DNA of 64,000 nucleotides from a virus, in IMG/VR virus record IMGVR_UViG_3300043403_000051, positions 19,055 through 83,054 of that record; one strand, 5' to 3'. This document shows, piece by piece, positions 15 to 19,119 of the stretch (within the stretch, counting starts at the first letter, position 1; each line of letters starts with the position of its first letter). A program made the translations under genes and the position numbers. The notes below the pieces were generated by a model, which worked only from the letters and a program-made list of their open reading frames with translations, had not been told where the DNA came from and did not search any database.

Positions 15-87
15 GCTTTCTTAGCTCAACGGTGAGAGCAGGACGCTTATATCGTCAAGGTTACAGGTTCGAATCCTGTAGGAAGTA
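15..87 (+). tRNA. tRNA-Ile (anticodon TAT)
   Basis: Complete cloverleaf: acceptor 15-21 pairs with 80-86, D stem GCTC/GAGC, anticodon loop CTTATAT at 46-52, T arm ACAGG/CCTGT with loop TTCGAAT. The anticodon TAT would read the rare Ile codon ATA. No CCA is encoded, so a host CCA-adding enzyme is needed. First of three closely spaced tRNA genes whose promoter must lie upstream of the window. Confidence 0.85.
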
Positions 88-92
88 CATAT

Positions 93-166
93 TGAGATGT
101 AGCTCAATTGGTGAGAGCATATGACTGATACTCATAAGGTTGAAGGTTCGACCCCTTTCATCTCAA
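93..166 (+). tRNA. tRNA-Ile (anticodon GAT)
   Basis: Perfect 7-bp acceptor stem (TGAGATG/CATCTCA), D stem GCTC/GAGC, anticodon stem TATGA/TCATA around loop CTGATAC, T arm with loop TTCGACC, discriminator A, no encoded CCA. Six bases after the preceding tRNA, so it is probably processed from the same transcript. Confidence 0.93.
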
Positions 167-171
167 CACAC

Positions 172-245
172 GGGGCAATAGTTTAAGCGGCTTAAAACAA
201 TTGATTTGCAATCAGTAGTTCCGATTTCGAGTATCGGTGGCTCCA
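172..245 (+). tRNA. tRNA-Ala (anticodon TGC)
   Basis: Acceptor 172-178 pairs with 238-244, with one mismatch and a G3:U70 wobble, the hallmark of tRNA-Ala. Anticodon loop is TTTGCAA, and the T arm CCGAT/ATCGG has loop TTCGAGT. Discriminator A, no CCA. Its 3' end lies 14 bases before the start of the next protein gene. Confidence 0.85.
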
Positions 246-259
246 CACAAAGAACAACA

Positions 260-739
260 ATGGACAAATATTTTAAAACTGAGACTGGTAAAATAGTTGA
301 TATAATAGAATACACGGCCCAACAAATAAAAGACAATCCCTCTGTTAAGATATACATAGGTGCTGATAGCCAAGTCTACGGCCCTAAGATTAAGTTTATC
401 TTAGCTATTGTATATAGGGTTGGTAATAGGGGTGGGCACTGTATTCATAAGCTTATAAAGACTGAAAGACCACCCAAAGGGATTCCTGATGAAATTCAGG
501 TTAATAACAGGCTTACAGAGGAAGTTTACTTAACTATGGAGCTTGCCCAATATTTTATTGATAATAGTTCTTTTAAACTGGAGGCAGTTGAATTTGACTT
601 TAATCAAGAGGAAAGTTACCTAAGTAACAAGCTAATAAACTTATCAACAGGTTGGGCTAAAGGACTTGGTTTTAAAGCACGTACTAAGCCTGATGAACTG
701 ATAGCTTGCAAGTATGCAGACCATCTCGTAAGATTTTAA
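260..739 (+). CDS. RNase H-like protein, YkuK/DUF458 type
   Basis: A 159-residue protein resembling the RNase H-fold family of Bacillus YkuK. Near the N-terminus the strand IYIGADSQ carries the first acidic residue expected of an RNase H core. EFDFN in the middle and KPDELIACKYADHL at the C-terminus fit the later acidic positions. Activity and substrate are not known for the family; RNA or DNA processing is an inference. I chose ATG 260 because a longer in-frame start at 206 lies inside the tRNA-Ala gene. The gene sits between tRNA-Ala and a GIY-YIG nuclease that starts 2 bases after its stop, so it may share the tRNA transcript. A role in tRNA metabolism would be speculative. Confidence 0.7.
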   Translation: MDKYFKTETGKIVDIIEYTAQQIKDNPSVKIYIGADSQVYGPKIKFILAIVYRVGNRGGHCIHKLIKTERPPKGIPDEIQVNNRLTEEVYLTMELAQYFIDNSSFKLEAVEFDFNQEESYLSNKLINLSTGWAKGLGFKARTKPDELIACKYADHLVRF

Positions 740-741
740 TT

Positions 742-1338
742 ATGATTGTAATATATAAAATAGAAAATCCAAAAGGTAAAGTTTATATTGGTCAAACCAA
801 AAGACTTATTCAAAGAAAGTCTGCTTACAAAAATTTAAGATGTAAGAAACAAAGAAAACTTTATAGTTCTTTAAATAAATATGGTTGGGAAAATCATACA
901 CTTTGTGTTTTACATGAGTTACCTGATGATATAGAGCAAAGAGTAGTAGATGATTATGAAATTTTTTACTATGAACAATTTATTGCTTGTGGATTTGAAA
1001 TGCTAAACCTAAAAACATGCGGAAACGGCGGAGGATTACACTCGGAGGAAACAAAGAGATTGATAGGAAAACAAAGTAAGGAAAGATTTAAAGCTAAATC
1101 TGGAATGAAAATAGCTCAGGTAAATCTTAATTTGGAAATTATTAATTTTTGGGAGAACGGTTATACACTACAACAAGAAAGAAAGTATTACAATATATCA
1201 AGAAAATGCAGAGAATTTCCAAGTATAGCTTATGGATATTTTTGGTTATACGAAAAAGATTTACATAAATTAACGCAAATAGACAAGCTTAAAATAAAAA
1301 AAGACGGGAATGGTGTTTATAGTTATTTCAAAATGTAA
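742..1338 (+). CDS. GIY-YIG family (homing-type) endonuclease
   Basis: A 198-residue protein. The first 20 residues carry the two family signatures, here in the variant forms VIY and YIG (VYIGQT), followed by Arg-rich helix RLIQRKSAY, which can supply the catalytic arginine. A later segment, HSEETKRLIGKQSKERF, looks like a NUMOD3-type DNA-binding motif common in free-standing homing endonucleases. The start is the ATG at 742, just after the stop of the preceding gene; a longer frame from 706 would overlap that gene. It lies between two tRNA groups, a typical site for mobile nucleases in phage genomes. It probably cleaves a related phage genome to spread itself; the target is unknown. I see no sign that it interrupts another gene. 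Confidence 0.85.
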   Translation: MIVIYKIENPKGKVYIGQTKRLIQRKSAYKNLRCKKQRKLYSSLNKYGWENHTLCVLHELPDDIEQRVVDDYEIFYYEQFIACGFEMLNLKTCGNGGGLHSEETKRLIGKQSKERFKAKSGMKIAQVNLNLEIINFWENGYTLQQERKYYNISRKCREFPSIAYGYFWLYEKDLHKLTQIDKLKIKKDGNGVYSYFKM

Positions 1339-1377: not shown

Positions 1378-1409
1378 TTTGGTAGATTAAAAAAAGATTT
1401 ATACCTTTG
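1378..1409 (+). promoter_or_regulatory. Bacteroidota-type promoter of tRNA group 2
   Basis: TTTG at 1378-1381 (extended TTTGGTAG), 20 bases of spacing, then TACCTTTG at 1402-1409, an exact match to the TAnnTTTG -7 box of the Bacteroidota housekeeping sigma factor. Expected transcription start is about 1414-1416, at or just before the ATG of leader peptide 1. The promoter of tRNA group 3 is almost the same over its whole length, so the two look like copies. Confidence 0.8.
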
Positions 1410-1415
1410 TATCCC

Positions 1416-1493
1416 ATGAAGAATTTCAACACATATTATAGTCTCTCATTGTTATCCAGCCTAACGGGTCGGGAGCTAAAGGTATGGGTATAA
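1416..1493 (+). CDS. Leader peptide 1, tRNA operon attenuator (25 aa)
   Basis: A 25-codon ORF ending in two tandem TAA codons. Its ATG is 6 bases after the -7 box, so the transcript is probably leaderless. Residues 7-16 read YYSLSLLSSL. In codons: Tyr TAT twice; Ser AGT and AGC; Ser TCA and TCC; Leu TTG and TTA; Leu CTC and CTA. This is exactly two codons for each of the five tRNAs encoded immediately downstream: Tyr-GTA, Ser-GCT, Ser-TGA, Leu-TAA, Leu-TAG. Codons 19-21 contain GGGAGCT (1471-1477), complementary to the terminator 5' arm. By analogy with trp, his and phe leaders, ribosome stalling on the control codons should favour the antiterminator and let transcription reach the tRNAs. The peptide itself probably has no other function. 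Translation is inferred, not proven. Confidence 0.75.
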   Translation: MKNFNTYYSLSLLSSLTGRELKVWV

Positions 1494-1522
1494 TAAAGAT
1501 AAACTCTTAAATCAAAACATAT

Positions 1523-1550
1523 AAAAAAGCTCCCTATTGGGGGCTTTTTT
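1523..1550 (+). terminator. Intrinsic terminator of leader 1
   Basis: GCTCCC (1529-1534) and GGGGGC (1539-1544) form a stem with one T-G wobble and loop TATT. The stem is extended by A-T pairs and followed by a run of T to 1550. It lies between the leader ORF and the first downstream tRNA (8 bases away), so read-through is needed to express the tRNAs from the leader promoter. Confidence 0.85.
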
Positions 1551-1557
1551 AGTTTAT

Positions 1558-1630
1558 GGCTCTATGACGTAATTGGAAACCGTCTTGGCTTTAGAACCCA
1601 AGTTTCCGAGTTCGAGTCTCGGTAGAGCTA
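1558..1630 (+). tRNA. tRNA-Leu (anticodon TAG), short variable loop
   Basis: Acceptor GGCTCTA/TAGAGCT with a terminal G-T pair. D stem is 3 bp (ACG/CGT) with a large D loop, as in Leu and Ser tRNAs. Anticodon loop TTTAGAA has anticodon TAG and a C-C mismatch closing the stem. The T arm CCGAG/CTCGG has loop TTCGAGT; discriminator A. The variable loop is only 4 bases, although bacterial tRNA-Leu normally has a long variable arm. The identity is taken from the anticodon. Confidence 0.72.
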
Positions 1631-1633
1631 CAT

Positions 1634-1706
1634 GCCTTTGTGATGAAACGGAATACATGTCAGACTTAAAATCTGAATTTTACGGGTTCGACTCCCGTCA
1701 GAGGTA
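1634..1706 (+). tRNA. tRNA-Leu (anticodon TAA), short variable loop
   Basis: Acceptor GCCTTTG/CAGAGGT with two wobble pairs, anticodon stem TCAGA/TCTGA perfect around loop CTTAAAA, T arm ACGGG/CCCGT with loop TTCGACT, discriminator A, no CCA. Anticodon TAA reads TTA and TTG. Like its neighbour it has a short variable loop (5 bases) instead of the usual long arm of bacterial tRNA-Leu. Confidence 0.8.
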
Positions 1707-1711
1707 CATTT

Positions 1712-1796
1712 GGAAGCACGTAAAGTTGGCGTACTTATCCGTCTTGAAAACGGTGAAGAGGTAACACTTGTGCAGGTTCGACCCCTGCTGTTTCCG
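1712..1796 (+). tRNA. tRNA-Ser (anticodon TGA)
   Basis: Acceptor GGAAGCA/TGTTTCC with one wobble, anticodon stem CCGT/ACGG with loop CTTGAAA, a long variable arm at about 1753-1771 as expected for Ser, T arm GCAGG/CCTGC with loop TTCGACC, and discriminator G as in bacterial tRNA-Ser. Confidence 0.9.
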
Positions 1797-1799
1797 CAT

Positions 1800-1883
1800 A
1801 GAGAGGTGACTGAATGGTAAGGTACTGGTTTGCTAAACCAGGGTCAGATAAAACTGGAGTGGGTTCGATACCCATCCTCTCTG
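1800..1883 (+). tRNA. tRNA-Ser (anticodon GCT)
   Basis: Acceptor AGAGAGG/CCTCTCT is perfect, anticodon stem CTGGT/ACCAG is perfect around loop TTGCTAA, long variable arm, T loop TTCGATA, discriminator G. Reads AGC and AGT. Confidence 0.9.
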
Positions 1884-1889
1884 CTAAAG

Positions 1890-1936
1890 GGTTCCTGTAT
1901 CAGGCAAAATATAACCCCCGTTGTGGTATAGGAATC
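1890..1936 (+). other. tRNA-sized-stem hairpin element between tRNA-Ser and tRNA-Tyr
   Basis: GGTTCCT (1890-1896) pairs over 7 bp with AGGAATC (1930-1936), with one G-T, enclosing 33 bases. The stem length matches a tRNA acceptor, but there is no T-loop consensus and no convincing anticodon arm. It could be a decayed tRNA, a processing signal or a small structured RNA in the tRNA transcript. No function can be assigned. Confidence 0.35.
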
Positions 1937-1944
1937 GTTTATTT

Positions 1945-2029
1945 GAGATAGCTGTCGTGATGGAGGAACGGCACTGGTCTGTAAAACCAGCACTATGAAA
2001 CACAGTAGGTTCGAATCCCACCTATCTCA
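1945..2029 (+). tRNA. tRNA-Tyr (anticodon GTA)
   Basis: Acceptor GAGATAG/CTATCTC is perfect, anticodon stem CTGGT/ACCAG around loop CTGTAAA, long variable arm typical of bacterial tRNA-Tyr, T loop TTCGAAT with one mismatch in the T stem, discriminator A. Last tRNA of the group controlled by attenuator 1. Confidence 0.92.
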
Positions 2030-2055
2030 CATTAACAATTAATTTTAATTATTTA

Positions 2056-2087
2056 TTTGGTAGTTAGATAAAAAGATACTACCTTTG
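2056..2087 (+). promoter_or_regulatory. Bacteroidota-type promoter of tRNA group 3
   Basis: TTTG at 2056-2059 (extended TTTGGTAG), 20-base spacer, TACCTTTG at 2080-2087. Same elements and spacing as the promoter at 1378-1409, with near-identical flanks. Expected start of transcription is about 2092, at the ATG of leader peptide 2. Confidence 0.8.
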
Positions 2088-2091
2088 CTTT

Positions 2092-2172
2092 ATGAATGTA
2101 ACACGTACACATACGCAACAGTTTTGGTTCCCTACAAGGGCTGGGCTTGGTATGTGTGATAATAGAGGATAA
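2092..2172 (+). CDS. Leader peptide 2, tRNA operon attenuator (26 aa)
   Basis: A 26-codon ORF with its ATG 4 bases after the -7 box, so probably leaderless. Residues 4-16 read TRTHTQQFWFPTR: every one of these 13 residues is Thr, Arg, His, Gln, Phe, Trp or Pro, and all seven occur. The tRNAs encoded just downstream are Pro, Thr, Phe, Gln, His, Arg and Trp, the same set. Gln is represented by both CAA and CAG, Phe by both TTT and TTC, Thr by ACA and ACG. Arg is coded once by CGT, which the Arg-ACG tRNA reads, and once by AGG, which it would not. The peptide is most likely a sensor of charged-tRNA supply; no other homology is recognised. Translation is inferred. Confidence 0.77.
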   Translation: MNVTRTHTQQFWFPTRAGLGMCDNRG

Positions 2173-2196
2173 ATTCCCCCAAACACTCACTCATTG

Positions 2197-2228
2197 AAAA
2201 GCCCAGGACATAAAATCCTGGGTTTTTT
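2197..2228 (+). terminator. Intrinsic terminator of leader 2
   Basis: CCCAGGA (2202-2208) and TCCTGGG (2216-2222) form a perfect 7-bp stem with loop CATAAAA. The stem is flanked by AAAA on the left and six T on the right. It ends 10 bases before tRNA-Pro. Confidence 0.88.
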
Positions 2229-2237
2229 ATTTTTAAT

Positions 2238-2311
2238 CGGGATGTGGACTAATGGCAAGTCACTTACTTTGGGAGTAAGGCATCATGGAGGTTCGAGTCC
2301 TCTCATCCCGA
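2238..2311 (+). tRNA. tRNA-Pro (anticodon TGG)
   Basis: Acceptor CGGGATG/CATCCCG is perfect with C1-G72 typical of Pro. Anticodon stem CTTAC/GTAAG around loop TTTGGGA, T loop TTCGAGT, discriminator A, no CCA. Confidence 0.93.
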
Positions 2312-2316
2312 CATTT

Positions 2317-2388
2317 GCCTCGTAAGCATATATGGTGATGCAGCGCACTTGTAATGCGCAGAATAGGTTTCGAGTACCTAACTTGGCT
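2317..2388 (+). tRNA. tRNA-Thr (anticodon TGT)
   Basis: Anticodon stem GCGCA/TGCGC is perfect around loop CTTGTAA, D stem GCAT/ATGC, T arm TAGGT/ACCTA with loop TTCGAGT. The acceptor stem GCCTCGT/ACTTGGC has two internal mismatches, so either the ends are slightly misplaced or the stem is weak. Confidence 0.8.
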
Positions 2389-2395
2389 CAGTAAT

Positions 2396-2467
2396 GGAGA
2401 TATAGCTCAGTTGGAAGAGCAACGGATTGAAGCCCCGTGAGCACCAGTTCGACTCTGGTTATCTCCA
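2396..2467 (+). tRNA. tRNA-Phe (anticodon GAA)
   Basis: Acceptor GGAGATA/TATCTCC is perfect, D stem GCTC/GAGC, anticodon loop TTGAAGC with one mismatch at the loop-closing pair, T arm ACCAG/CTGGT with loop TTCGACT, discriminator A. Confidence 0.88.
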
Positions 2468-2474
2468 CATATAT

Positions 2475-2545
2475 TCCCATTTGGCGTAACGGAAGCGTAG
2501 GACTCTTTGAAAGTCTTGGAAATTGTTCGATTCAATTAATGGGAG
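2475..2545 (+). tRNA. tRNA-Gln (anticodon TTG)
   Basis: Acceptor TCCCATT/AATGGGA is perfect with the weak T1-A72 pair typical of Gln and discriminator G. Anticodon stem GGACT/AGTCT around loop CTTTGAA; T arm AATTG/CAATT with loop TTCGATT. Confidence 0.92.
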
Positions 2546-2550
2546 CACAC

Positions 2551-2622
2551 GGGTTTATTGATGTAATGGAAGCATGGCAGTTTGTGAAGCTGCTCGTATG
2601 GGTTCGAACCCCATATCTACCC
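2551..2622 (+). tRNA. tRNA-His (anticodon GTG)
   Basis: Anticodon stem GCAGT/GCTGC around loop TTGTGAA, T arm ATGGG/CCCAT with loop TTCGAAC. An extra 5' G (2551) opposite C73 is the diagnostic tRNA-His feature. The acceptor stem has two mismatches. Confidence 0.83.
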
Positions 2623-2627
2623 CTTTT

Positions 2628-2699
2628 ATCCTCTTAGCATAATGGAAGTGCAGCAAGCTACGAACTTGCGTTGTGTGAGTTCGAGTCTCATGGAGGATT
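2628..2699 (+). tRNA. tRNA-Arg (anticodon ACG)
   Basis: Acceptor ATCCTCT/GGAGGAT with one wobble, anticodon stem GCAAG/CTTGC is perfect around loop CTACGAA, T loop TTCGAGT. Anticodon ACG (usually deaminated to ICG) reads CGT and CGC, the preferred Arg codons of the major capsid gene in this window. Confidence 0.88.
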
Positions 2700-2711
2700 C
2701 TTTTTATAACT

Positions 2712-2781
2712 GCGTATGCCTAAAGGAGTAGTAAGCGGTCTCCAAAACCGTGATTTATCAGTTCGAGTCTGGTCATGCGTG
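2712..2781 (+). tRNA. tRNA-Trp (anticodon CCA)
   Basis: Acceptor GCGTATG/CATGCGT with wobbles, anticodon stem GCGGT/ACCGT around loop CTCCAAA, T arm ATCAG/CTGGT with loop TTCGAGT, discriminator G. Last tRNA of the array. Confidence 0.88.
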
Positions 2782-2793
2782 CTTAAATAGTAT

Positions 2794-2842
2794 ACCCAAG
2801 TTAATTATTTGTTAAAAGTAATTGATTTGGGTTATTTTTTTT
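2794..2842 (+). terminator. Terminator of the tRNA array
   Basis: A 14-bp stem (2794-2807 with 2819-2832, two G-T pairs) starts ACCCAA and ends TTGGGT. Eight T follow at 2835-2842. It ends the third tRNA group, and the T run overlaps the -33 box of the next promoter. Confidence 0.85.
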
Positions 2843-16754: not shown

Positions 16755-17218
16755 TGGAACCTTTCGTTTTTGCAAAAAATAAAAATACATGTTCTGCTGT
16801 CATATCAGCATCTTGTGTATTATGGCCTGGCTATAAGTTAGAATCTTTTGATTATACTAACGTGCAATGTGTGCTACAAGTAGATGATATTATACTAAGT
16901 ATTGATAAACTATTAAACAAAATAAATAAGGCAATTTCCACAAATGATTTAACAAGACAATGTTTAATTGTTGAAGATACTGAAAAATTAAATTCTTATG
17001 TTAAAAGTTTGGTTTCCAATTATTGTCAATTAAAAGAAGATTTTGATACTTTAAAAGAAGATTTTGATAACTTAGACGTTTTTCAAAAAGTACTAAATAT
17101 AGACTTATCATGTATTTTAGGACAATATAATTGTACTCCTGGTAATGAACATAAACTTTCATTTATTTTGTCAACTCTTGCAAAGGAAATTTGTTCACTA
17201 AAAACACAAATTAACTAA
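16754..17218 (+). CDS. Putative fibre-associated protein (154 aa)
   Basis: A 154-residue helical protein with heptad-like repeats at about residues 85-110 (LKEDFDTLKEDFDNLDVF), suggesting a coiled coil. Six Cys residues. Overlaps its neighbours by one base on both sides. Position before two fibre genes suggests an adaptor or chaperone for fibres; this is inference. Confidence 0.5.
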   Translation: MEPFVFAKNKNTCSAVISASCVLWPGYKLESFDYTNVQCVLQVDDIILSIDKLLNKINKAISTNDLTRQCLIVEDTEKLNSYVKSLVSNYCQLKEDFDTLKEDFDNLDVFQKVLNIDLSCILGQYNCTPGNEHKLSFILSTLAKEICSLKTQIN

Positions 17219-19119
17219 TGTCAACTACAAACTGTGGATGTCCTGAAACTCCATGTACTGCTACTATTGACCCTTGCACAAACAAAGGTTGTCCAATTCC
17301 GCCAACTGATGCGGAATGTATATATTTTAATTTATTTTCAGATAGTGGATTACCATGTATAGGTGTTACAGGTGGGACAAATTTAAAAACTATTTTAGAG
17401 AAAATAGATGTAAAATTATGTAGTATAAATCCATATGATTTTAGTGCTTATGATTTAAAATGTTTAGATGATACTACTACAATATTAACATTTAAAAATT
17501 TTGCAGAAGCTGTTGCAACACAATTGTGTCAGGCTAAAACAAATATTGCAACTTTAACAAATACATTATCCGCTCTATCAACAACAGTTGACGTAAATAA
17601 TGTTCCTGTTATTGCAGATAATTGTTCTATAGGGATATTACCAAATGACACAGTAAAACAAGTTCTACAAAAACTTGTAAATAAAATTTGTACGTTAACT
17701 CCAACAGATGTCAGTCCATCAATAGGTGTATCAAGTACGAATAGTATTTCATTTTTAGCGTCAGGTACAAAAAATCATAATATATCAGCAAATGTTAGAG
17801 TATCTCCAAATATTGGTAATACTTTACAAACATTAGTAAATGGATTATATGTTGCCACACCTGCGTCAGTAGCTGCACAAACATTAAGTTATAATACACT
17901 ATCAAGAGAATTAGCTATATCGGGTGGTAATTCGATAACACTTCCACCAGACTTAGATAATCAAACACTTTCGTTAAATTTATTAACAAATATATTAACT
18001 ATAAGCGGTGGTAACTCTGTTGATTTTACTCCATTATTTTCTGCAATTTCTATAACAGAAACTGATATAACAGCAAACGATAGTCAAACAATTAATTTTA
18101 CTACATCGGGAACAGCAGACCATACCTTAACAGGAAGTGTAATTGTTGACAATACTCAACCCAACGCTCTTATTGCAAATAGTAATGGTTTATATGTAGC
18201 CCCCGTTTCAGTTCCACTGCAAACAGGACAAAATGGTATTACAACAAATCTTGGATTAATTGAACTTGGCGGAAGCCTTATAAAAGATACGGTATTATCA
18301 GAAGTTACAGGAACTCATGAATTTGCGCTTGAGGCAAAAAATATTTGGTTTGGTAATGATTATCTTACATATCTAAATAATTTTGATATTACTCAATTTG
18401 GGGTTGTGTCAACAAAAAATGTTACAGATTTTTTAACATATAGTAATATGTTAAGCTCATTTGACTTAACTATAGACGGTGGATTTTCAACAGGTAAGGT
18501 ATTTACAGCAAGTAATAATGGATTAGTTTTAAATTTAGATAGTTCATCAACTGTTCCCAACTCTACAGTTGTTGGTGCAAATGTCAGTACAGTTAATCTT
18601 AAAACAAATAACGAAAATTTAACATTTTCTCAAGCTACAGATTTAGTTGGTACATCAGTAAGAGCTTTATATACATCAAGATTATCTTTTCAAATTTTAG
18701 AGGAAACAACAACATCTTCTACAATCAGTCATGCAGCAACCCTTGCTATTGGCTCTCCTTATTATGTACCTGGTGGTGTAGATTTTGCTACAATAACAAA
18801 TTACTATGGAATTTTATTAAATAGGTCTAATTCTTTTAATTTAAGTCTTATTACTAATAGATGGGGTATTTATCAAGAAGGAGAAAGTGATAATAACTAT
18901 TTTGCAGGATTTACAAGTTTTGGAAATACAACTACGCCAACCTCTCAAATAGATATTGCTACAACAAATGGTTATCAAGCCCTTCGTTTAAGAAATGATT
19001 ATACTCCAAGCGCAACAGGTGATACTAACGGAGAAATTGGTAATATTACATGGGATGATAGCTTTATTTATATAAAGACATCCGTTGGTTGGAAAAAAGC
19101 AACATTAGCAGCAATATAA
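17218..19119 (+). CDS. Fibre protein with Cys-rich N-terminal module (633 aa)
   Basis: A 633-residue beta-rich protein. Residues 1-75 form a Cys-rich head (CGCPETPC, CTNKGCP, CIYFNL, then a terminal CS) shared in pattern with the next gene, probably the virion-binding end. Repeated short strands follow (SYNTLSRELAISGGNSITL and SLNLLTNILTISGGNSVDF are two copies, about residues 225-275). The C-terminal part has LALRLRNDYTPSATGDTNGE-like fibre-tip sequence with a WGIYQEGESDNNYFAG motif. It is low in charge and high in Thr/Asn/Ser, as typical of phage fibres. Probably a tail or head fibre that contacts the host surface; no enzymatic motif. Confidence 0.65.
   Translation: MSTTNCGCPETPCTATIDPCTNKGCPIPPTDAECIYFNLFSDSGLPCIGVTGGTNLKTILEKIDVKLCSINPYDFSAYDLKCLDDTTTILTFKNFAEAVATQLCQAKTNIATLTNTLSALSTTVDVNNVPVIADNCSIGILPNDTVKQVLQKLVNKICTLTPTDVSPSIGVSSTNSISFLASGTKNHNISANVRVSPNIGNTLQTLVNGLYVATPASVAAQTLSYNTLSRELAISGGNSITLPPDLDNQTLSLNLLTNILTISGGNSVDFTPLFSAISITETDITANDSQTINFTTSGTADHTLTGSVIVDNTQPNALIANSNGLYVAPVSVPLQTGQNGITTNLGLIELGGSLIKDTVLSEVTGTHEFALEAKNIWFGNDYLTYLNNFDITQFGVVSTKNVTDFLTYSNMLSSFDLTIDGGFSTGKVFTASNNGLVLNLDSSSTVPNSTVVGANVSTVNLKTNNENLTFSQATDLVGTSVRALYTSRLSFQILEETTTSSTISHAATLAIGSPYYVPGGVDFATITNYYGILLNRSNSFNLSLITNRWGIYQEGESDNNYFAGFTSFGNTTTPTSQIDIATTNGYQALRLRNDYTPSATGDTNGEIGNITWDDSFIYIKTSVGWKKATLAAI

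What the first reader, a model, noticed from the sequence alone, without database searches (positions are those of the whole stretch)
1378..2781. Phage tRNA operons controlled by leader-peptide attenuation that senses the same tRNAs
Two tRNA groups each follow the unit promoter, short leader ORF, antiterminator, terminator, tRNA genes. In each unit the amino acids in the leader run are the set of downstream tRNAs: {Tyr, Ser, Leu} in unit 1 and {Thr, Arg, His, Gln, Phe, Trp, Pro} in unit 2, with no tRNA of either group missing. Leader ORF and antiterminator share bases, and the antiterminator is exactly complementary to the terminator arm. Translation-coupled attenuation is known for amino-acid biosynthesis operons (trp, his, phe) and aminoacyl-tRNA synthetases (pheST). 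Sequence-level feedback of phage tRNA genes on the supply of those same charged tRNAs is, as far as I know, not described. The biology is sensible: when a tRNA becomes limiting in an infected cell, the ribosome stalls and the replacement tRNAs are switched on together.
Basis: partly seen in the sequence, partly recalled or inferred. Interest (0 to 1): 0.95.

Follow-up and report, generated by a model that had tools for sequence, protein, structure and literature searches.

The report
Phage tRNA genes under codon-sensing switches
Phages of Bacteroidota bacteria keep their many tRNA genes behind transcription stop signals preceded by a tiny gene whose codons are the ones read by those same tRNAs, so that shortage of any of these tRNAs should stall a ribosome there and release the replacement tRNAs; this regulatory logic for tRNA genes appears to be undescribed.

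Summary
Both units in the window have a Bacteroidota-type promoter, a 25-26 aa ORF, a 7-8 bp antiterminator strand inside the ORF, a terminator, then tRNA genes. YYSLSLLSSL precedes Leu, Leu, Ser, Ser, Tyr; TRTHTQQFWFPTR precedes Pro, Thr, Phe, Gln, His, Arg, Trp. A third unit just upstream of the window completes all 20 amino acids. About 35 such leaders occur in crAss-like phages and in unrelated Bacteroidota phages, including cultured phi38:1, phi4:1 and Panino. Phages that split the 20 amino acids differently have leaders split to match. In 11 multi-unit genomes the true leader-to-tRNA pairing is always the best one. Arg codons (AGA or CGN) follow the Arg anticodon. Antiterminators match their own terminators, not swapped ones. 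The codon run typically ends 1-4 codons before the antiterminator. Missing tRNAs predicted from leaders were then found. Best explanation: ribosome-stalling (trp-type) attenuation releasing tRNA genes when their own aminoacyl-tRNAs run short. No RNA or translation data were examined. No prior report was found in the open-access library. I rate it a new variant of a known kind, of high interest.

The parts
1379..1409 (+). Promoter of unit 1: TTGG (-33 region) and TACCTTTG (-7 region, 1402-1409), Bacteroidota type
   Evidence: Sequence; conserved in alignment with Lbo-JY46 unit B; similar elements before most other leaders. Promoter class from general knowledge, not tested.
1416..1493 (+). Leader ORF 1, MKNFNTYYSLSLLSSLTGRELKVWV; ATG 6 nt after the -7 element, so almost leaderless
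1434..1463 (+). Control codons YYSLSLLSSL = TAT TAT AGT CTC TCA TTG TTA TCC AGC CTA: both Leu boxes, both Ser boxes and Tyr
1471..1477 (+). Antiterminator strand GGGAGCT, pairs with 1528-1534
   Evidence: matching change in Lbo-JY46
1523..1550 (+). Terminator 1 (AAAAAAGCTCCC TATT GGGGGCTTTTTT)
1558..1631 (+). tRNA-Leu(tag)
1634..1707 (+). tRNA-Leu(taa)
1712..1797 (+). tRNA-Ser(tga)
   Evidence: ARAGORN at lowered threshold (L005 4267-4352); not found at default threshold
1800..1884 (+). tRNA-Ser(gct)
1945..2030 (+). tRNA-Tyr(gta)
2057..2087 (+). Promoter of unit 2: TTGG and TACCTTTG (2080-2087)
   Evidence: alignment with Lbo-JY46; same element found upstream at G000 17496-17546
2092..2172 (+). 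Leader ORF 2, MNVTRTHTQQFWFPTRAGLGMCDNRG; ATG 4 nt after the -7 element
   Evidence: in-frame 3-nt indel against Lbo-JY46
2101..2139 (+). Control codons TRTHTQQFWFPTR (Arg codon CGT, matching tRNA-Arg(acg); the last codon, AGG, is outside that box)
2141..2148 (+). Antiterminator strand CTGGGCTT, pairs with 2199-2206
2195..2229 (+). Terminator 2
2238..2782 (+). tRNA-Pro(tgg), Thr(tgt), Phe(gaa), Gln(ttg), His(gtg), Arg(acg), Trp(cca)
2794..2832 (+). Terminator closing unit 2
15..246 (+). Last tRNAs of unit 0: Ile(tat), Ile(gat), Ala(tgc). Its promoter, leader and terminator lie upstream of the window (leader G000:17565-17669)

Best explanation
Each tRNA group is an operon controlled by ribosome-mediated transcription attenuation. 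Transcription starts a few bases before a short leader ORF. The ribosome follows RNA polymerase through a run of codons read by the tRNAs encoded downstream. If all those aminoacyl-tRNAs are available, the ribosome moves on over the antiterminator strand (about codons 17-21). The terminator forms and only a short leader RNA is made. If any of them is scarce, the ribosome stalls inside the run. The antiterminator strand, just beyond the ribosome, captures the 5' arm of the terminator; polymerase reads through and the whole tRNA group is made. Two or three such units together cover nearly the whole genetic code. Shown by sequence and comparison: the parts, the match of codons to tRNAs, its covariation, the complementarity and the spacing. 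Inferred: transcription, translation, stalling, kinetic antitermination. The likeliest input is loss of host tRNAs during infection (for example by tRNA-cutting defences or host shut-off) rather than simple amino-acid starvation; this last step is a conjecture.
For: Codon-tRNA match: 33 tabulated leaders hold on average 98% of the amino acids of their own tRNA set, against 46% for unlike sets. The own pairing is the unique best of 20,736 within-genome permutations for 8 genomes, and the best in each of 11 multi-unit genomes. Codon-box match: where an Arg tRNA is in the set, the Arg codons in the run are AGA with anticodon tct and CGN with acg, and both with both. Predictions met: leader 1 of G002 (L047) called for Ser, and Ser(tga) and Ser(gct) were found when more of the record was read; the Gundel_1 leader called for Tyr and Cys, found by eye; a second G002 leader, TTTRQHIEITIGCQGQ, matches its tRNAs 16 of 16. 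Antiterminator: mean pairing score with own terminator arm 18.6 against 13.3 for swapped arms, 0 of 20,000 permutations reach the sum. Geometry: the codon run ends a median of 2 codons before the antiterminator, Spearman 0.80. Folding model: antiterminator probability 0.94 with the ribosome at codons 4-12, 0.15 from codon 18 on. The same mechanism is reported for amino-acid operons in Flavobacterium psychrophilum (PMC9723704).
Against: At equilibrium the terminator wins in most units whatever the ribosome position; only about seven units switch. In most units the antiterminator also forms with no ribosome, so a protector hairpin as in trp is often missing. A few leaders carry codons without a tRNA detected (L124: R, L, T; L023: S, T). 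crAss001 has a rich tRNA array without a leader. Leader candidates were picked partly by eye, as the ORF plus terminator before an array. Lowered ARAGORN thresholds were used to complete the sets. There are no RNA or ribosome data.
Confidence: 0.88

Rival explanations
1. Same attenuator, but the physiological input is amino-acid starvation (uncharged tRNA) in general, and tRNA synthesis is a by-product or a way of raising charging capacity.
For: Leader attenuators elsewhere sense amino-acid supply; flavobacteria use them for biosynthesis operons (PMC9723704).
Against: Extra tRNA does not relieve lack of an amino acid. Groups mix up to a dozen unrelated amino acids. Arg isoacceptors with different anticodons are sensed by different units, which fits sensing of tRNA species rather than amino acid.
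Confidence: 0.25
2. Opposite polarity: translation of the leader is needed for read-through, and stalling switches the tRNAs off.
For: In most units equilibrium folding favours the terminator at any ribosome position.
Against: The stop codon lies about 15-45 nt before the terminator arm, so a ribosome at the stop should not cover it. The antiterminator is free mainly while the ribosome is inside the run.
Confidence: 0.05
3. Direct tRNA sensing by the leader RNA (T-box-like), the ORF being incidental.
For: Output and ligand are tRNAs.
Against: The Rfam scan of all arrays finds only tRNA, no T-box. The match is spread over 10-20 consecutive in-frame codons, with an in-frame indel between relatives.
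Confidence: 0.01
4. Ordinary intergenic terminators and chance short ORFs.
For: Short ORFs are common, and a terminator between genes is ordinary.
Against: Rank 1 of 319 ORFs for both runs; repeated in unrelated phages; absent from three non-Bacteroidota tRNA-rich phages and from a host's tRNA loci.
Confidence: 0.005

Closest known systems
Ribosome-mediated (leader-peptide) transcription attenuation: trp, his, phe, leu, thr, ilv, pheST operons
   Same: Promoter, short ORF with control codons, antiterminator overlapping the leader, intrinsic terminator before the regulated genes.
   Different: Regulated genes are phage tRNAs; one leader senses up to about a dozen amino acids; units together cover the code; control codons follow the tRNA gene content; many lack the trp-type protector hairpin; near-leaderless start with no Shine-Dalgarno seen.
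Leader-peptide attenuators of amino-acid operons in Flavobacterium psychrophilum (PMC9723704)
   Same: Same host phylum and proposed mechanism.
   Different: Chromosomal biosynthesis operons, not tRNA genes or phages.
T-box riboswitches
   Same: Antitermination responding to tRNA charging.
   Different: Bind tRNA directly, one specifier codon, no ORF; not detected here.
Phage tRNAs countering tRNA-cleaving defences (PMC10264068, PMC11555353)
   Same: Phage-encoded replacement tRNAs supply lost host tRNAs.
   Different: A search inside these papers found no mention of leaders or attenuation; SP15 tRNA-Tyr is described as driven by a strong promoter.

Membership tests
Ribosome-mediated (leader-peptide) transcription attenuator | Short leader ORF between promoter and terminator | tested here: met
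   Window units 1 and 2 plus more than 30 other leaders; the promoter element was not recognised before about a third of them
Ribosome-mediated (leader-peptide) transcription attenuator | ORF rich in control codons related to the regulated genes | tested here: met
Ribosome-mediated (leader-peptide) transcription attenuator | Mutually exclusive antiterminator and terminator | tested here: met
   own against swapped arms, 0 of 20,000
Ribosome-mediated (leader-peptide) transcription attenuator | Ribosome position decides which structure forms | tested here: inconclusive
   Model of the nascent RNA supports it; equilibrium folding switches in only about seven units
trp-type attenuator in the narrow sense | Protector 1:2 hairpin giving termination without translation | tested here: not met
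   Antiterminator is predicted without a ribosome in most units; six or seven units look protected. Not taken here as defining of the wider attenuator class
Ribosome-mediated (leader-peptide) transcription attenuator | Leader translated; read-through induced by shortage of the aminoacyl-tRNA | not testable with these tools
   Needs Ribo-seq, Term-seq or reporters
T-box riboswitch | Conserved T-box and specifier-loop RNA structure | tested here: not met
   Rfam gathering scan of arrays finds only RF00005
Rfam leader families (Trp, His, Leu, Thr, Phe leaders) | Match to the covariance model | tested here: not met
   No match at gathering score

The most novel reading that the evidence does not exclude
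Bacteroidota phages carry a code-wide tRNA surveillance system: two or three leader attenuators that between them test nearly every sense-codon family and release exactly the replacement tRNAs for the group in which one has run out, serving as an inducible counter-measure to tRNA-destroying host defences.
Probability: 0.5. Interest if true: 0.96.

Novelty: new variant of a known kind. Interest (0 to 1): 0.93.

Why it matters
Why phages carry tRNA genes, and when they are used, is a long-open question. These leaders record in their own sequence which shortages the phage responds to, so they turn the question into testable predictions: expression on depletion of a given isoacceptor, not constitutively. 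It would be the first case I know of in which tRNA genes are controlled by leader-peptide attenuation keyed to the same tRNAs, the widest OR-logic attenuators known to me (up to about 12 amino acids), and a code-wide sensor. Cultured systems (phi38:1, phi4:1 and phi17:2 with Cellulophaga baltica; Panino with Maribacter) make it testable now. The rule also predicts missed tRNA genes from leader codons.

Tried and rejected
Single-sequence terminase and RNase H-like protein scans of IMG/VR, and a degenerate DNA pattern of leader 1, found nothing; a terminase alignment worked. Equilibrium folding as a test of the switch was mostly uninformative, since the terminator usually wins, so a nascent-RNA model was used. 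csAssE-Sib and crAss001 arrays have no leader. Non-Bacteroidota tRNA-rich phages Pseudomonas EM, Mycobacterium Ewok and Vibrio pv27 show no matching leader. Tested Chitinophaga chromosomal tRNA loci show none. T-box and known leader families were rejected by Rfam. The automatic antiterminator caller misplaced a few helices and was replaced. Isolated single tRNAs in other relatives had no matching leader. Literature searches for a prior report found none; the library holds open-licence papers only.
Full report
WHAT IS THERE. The window is part of an 83-kb IMG/VR virus record (G000; window = 19055-83054). Its terminase matches crAss-like phages, is 75% identical to that of Leptolyngbya phage Lbo-JY46 and 32% to Cellulophaga phages phi4:1 and phi17:2; PHROG matches give terminase, portal and head proteins. 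Upstream of the terminase lie 24 tRNA genes (23 by default ARAGORN plus Ser(tga)) in three groups. Each group has the same parts in the same order: a TTTGG...TAnnTTTG promoter, a short ORF, a terminator, tRNAs. Unit 0 starts upstream of the window (leader G000:17565-17669) and ends inside it at 246.

MATCH OF LEADER TO tRNAs. Unit 0: V-I-D-N-I-R-N-A-E-G-C-K-K-A, tRNAs K, C, V, R(tct), N, M, G, E, D, I, I, A. Unit 1: YYSLSLLSSL, tRNAs L, L, S, S, Y. Unit 2: TRTHTQQFWFPTR, tRNAs P, T, F, Q, H, R(acg), W. Together the tRNAs of the three units cover all 20 amino acids; in the unit 0 leader Met appears only as the start codon. In the window the two runs are the longest of 319 ORFs of 18-45 aa (10 and 13 residues; next longest 7 and 7). 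The match reaches codon level: unit 1 holds both Leu boxes and both Ser boxes, unit 0 uses AGA for Arg(tct) and ATA and ATT for the two Ile tRNAs, unit 2 uses CGT for Arg(acg).

COMPARATIVE TEST. Lbo-JY46 has the same three units with diverged leaders. Its unit C differs from window unit 2 by an in-frame 3-nt indel, and unit B shows matching changes in antiterminator and terminator (GGGAGC with GCTCCC becomes AGGAG with CTCCT). phi4:1 and phi17:2 split the tRNAs differently, and their leaders follow: MKIQRLHLQELEQP for P, E, Q, H, L, L, R(acg); MQLTKTGITVIDKTKGARA for A, K, I, G, M, D, T, V, R(tct), M; MKTNYCTYNNSNWSFSY for Y, S, S, N, W, F, C. A terminase-alignment scan of IMG/VR gave further arrays: L009, L011, L012, L013, L023, L047, L051, L056, L078, and L124 from a Lacinutrix MAG found in the genome collection. 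In L012, Asn and Asp moved to the third unit and Arg(acg) to the first, and the leaders moved with them. Phages of other families have the units too: phi38:1 and Calle_1 (Pervagoviridae), Maribacter phage Panino and its IMG/VR relatives L136 and L137, Tenacibaculum phage Gundel_1 (Pachyviridae). Over the 20 leaders of 8 multi-unit genomes, the own pairing is the unique best of 20,736 within-genome permutations. Over 33 leaders, own coverage is 98% against 46% for unlike sets, and the own pairing is best in each of 11 genomes.

PREDICTIONS MET. In L047 the leader held Ser codons but no Ser tRNA was in the fetched stretch. Reading further showed Ser(tga) and Ser(gct), and a second leader TTTRQHIEITIGCQGQ before Thr, Cys, Gln, Ile, Gly, His, Glu, Arg(tct), Met. 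These two tRNA groups split the 20 amino acids almost without overlap. In Gundel_1 the leader's Tyr and Cys are matched by tRNAs that the default search misses.

THE SWITCH. All 25 units examined have a terminator. Most carry a 6-10 bp antiterminator, usually at codons 17-21. Pairing with the own arm is much better than with swapped arms (18.6 against 13.3, 0 of 20,000 permutations), although the sequences differ between phages. The run of matching codons ends a median of 2 codons before the antiterminator (Spearman 0.80), where the front of a ribosome would begin to cover it. In a model of the nascent RNA up to the loop of the terminator, the antiterminator forms with probability 0.94 when the ribosome is at codons 4-12 and 0.15 from codon 18 on. 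At equilibrium the complete terminator beats the antiterminator in most units, and only about seven switch, so the decision must be made during transcription. In most units the untranslated leader is also predicted to antiterminate, unlike trp; this would make the tRNAs default-on when translation fails altogether.

WHAT IS NOT SHOWN. Promoter use, leader translation, termination, read-through and its induction are all inferred. The biological input is a conjecture. Loss of host tRNAs fits best, because extra tRNA helps only then and because isoacceptors of Arg are sensed apart; tRNA-cutting defences and phage tRNAs that counter them are documented (PMC10264068, PMC11555353).

LIMITS. Candidates were taken as ORF plus terminator before an array, partly by eye. 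Some tRNAs come from lowered thresholds. phi4:1, phi38:1 and Panino share a partition, so the cases are not all independent. L124 and L023 are partial fits; L013 is a short set. crAss001 and csAssE-Sib have arrays without leaders. Only three non-Bacteroidota phages and one host genome were used as negative controls.

KNOWN OR NEW. The mechanism class is classical. Leader attenuators occur in flavobacterial amino-acid operons (PMC9723704). Rfam finds no leader or T-box family here. Ten literature searches found no report of leader attenuation of tRNA genes, in phages or otherwise, in the open-licence library; subscription papers and most preprints were not searched. Hence: new variant of a known kind.

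Noticed in passing
L003 (Leptolyngbya phage Lbo-JY46, PP438436): Recorded host is a cyanobacterium, but the phage has Bacteroidota-type promoters and its closest relatives are Bacteroidota phages; the true host is probably a Bacteroidota contaminant of the culture.
   Followed up: no
L126 (phi38:1), L007 (phi4:1), L008 (phi17:2), L128 (Panino): Database annotation misses or misplaces the leaders: phi38:1 gp067 is on the opposite strand of leader 2, phi4:1 gp075 and phi17:2 gp077 are leader 2 with an upstream start, Panino CDS0063 is leader 1 with an upstream start.
   Followed up: partly
phi4:1, phi38:1, Panino, L136: Phages of different families share the same split of tRNAs and similar leaders, which suggests that leader-tRNA cassettes are exchanged between phage families.
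   Followed up: no
L125 (crAss001) 1640-1690: Promoter with TATCTTTG directly before a large tRNA array, a three-codon ORF and no terminator: an unattenuated array, a natural contrast.
   Followed up: partly
window 742-1338: GIY-YIG-type homing endonuclease gene inserted between the tRNAs of unit 0 and the promoter of unit 1 (PHROG 314 and others).
   Followed up: partly
window 260-739: Conserved protein (phrog_11311, unknown function, 60% identical in Lbo-JY46) directly behind tRNA-Ala, inside the tRNA region; distant relatives in jumbo phages.
   Followed up: partly
L004 18073-18405: Small protein with an RlpA-like look (GTASFYHSKFEGRKTANGEVF) between tRNA-Arg and tRNA-Asn of unit 0, also in Lbo-JY46; not checked against family libraries.
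   Followed up: no
L004 about 17040-17135; L003 about 1205-1275: tRNA-like sequence with a T-arm but no ARAGORN call upstream of unit 0 in both phages; possibly a degenerate tRNA.
   Followed up: no
L003 2168-2241: tRNA-Cys with anticodon aca beside a normal Cys(gca) tRNA; call doubtful.
   Followed up: no
L124 4817-4915 (minus-strand coordinates): Leader keeps Arg, Leu and Thr codons although no such tRNAs were found downstream; perhaps recent tRNA loss or undetected genes.
   Followed up: partly
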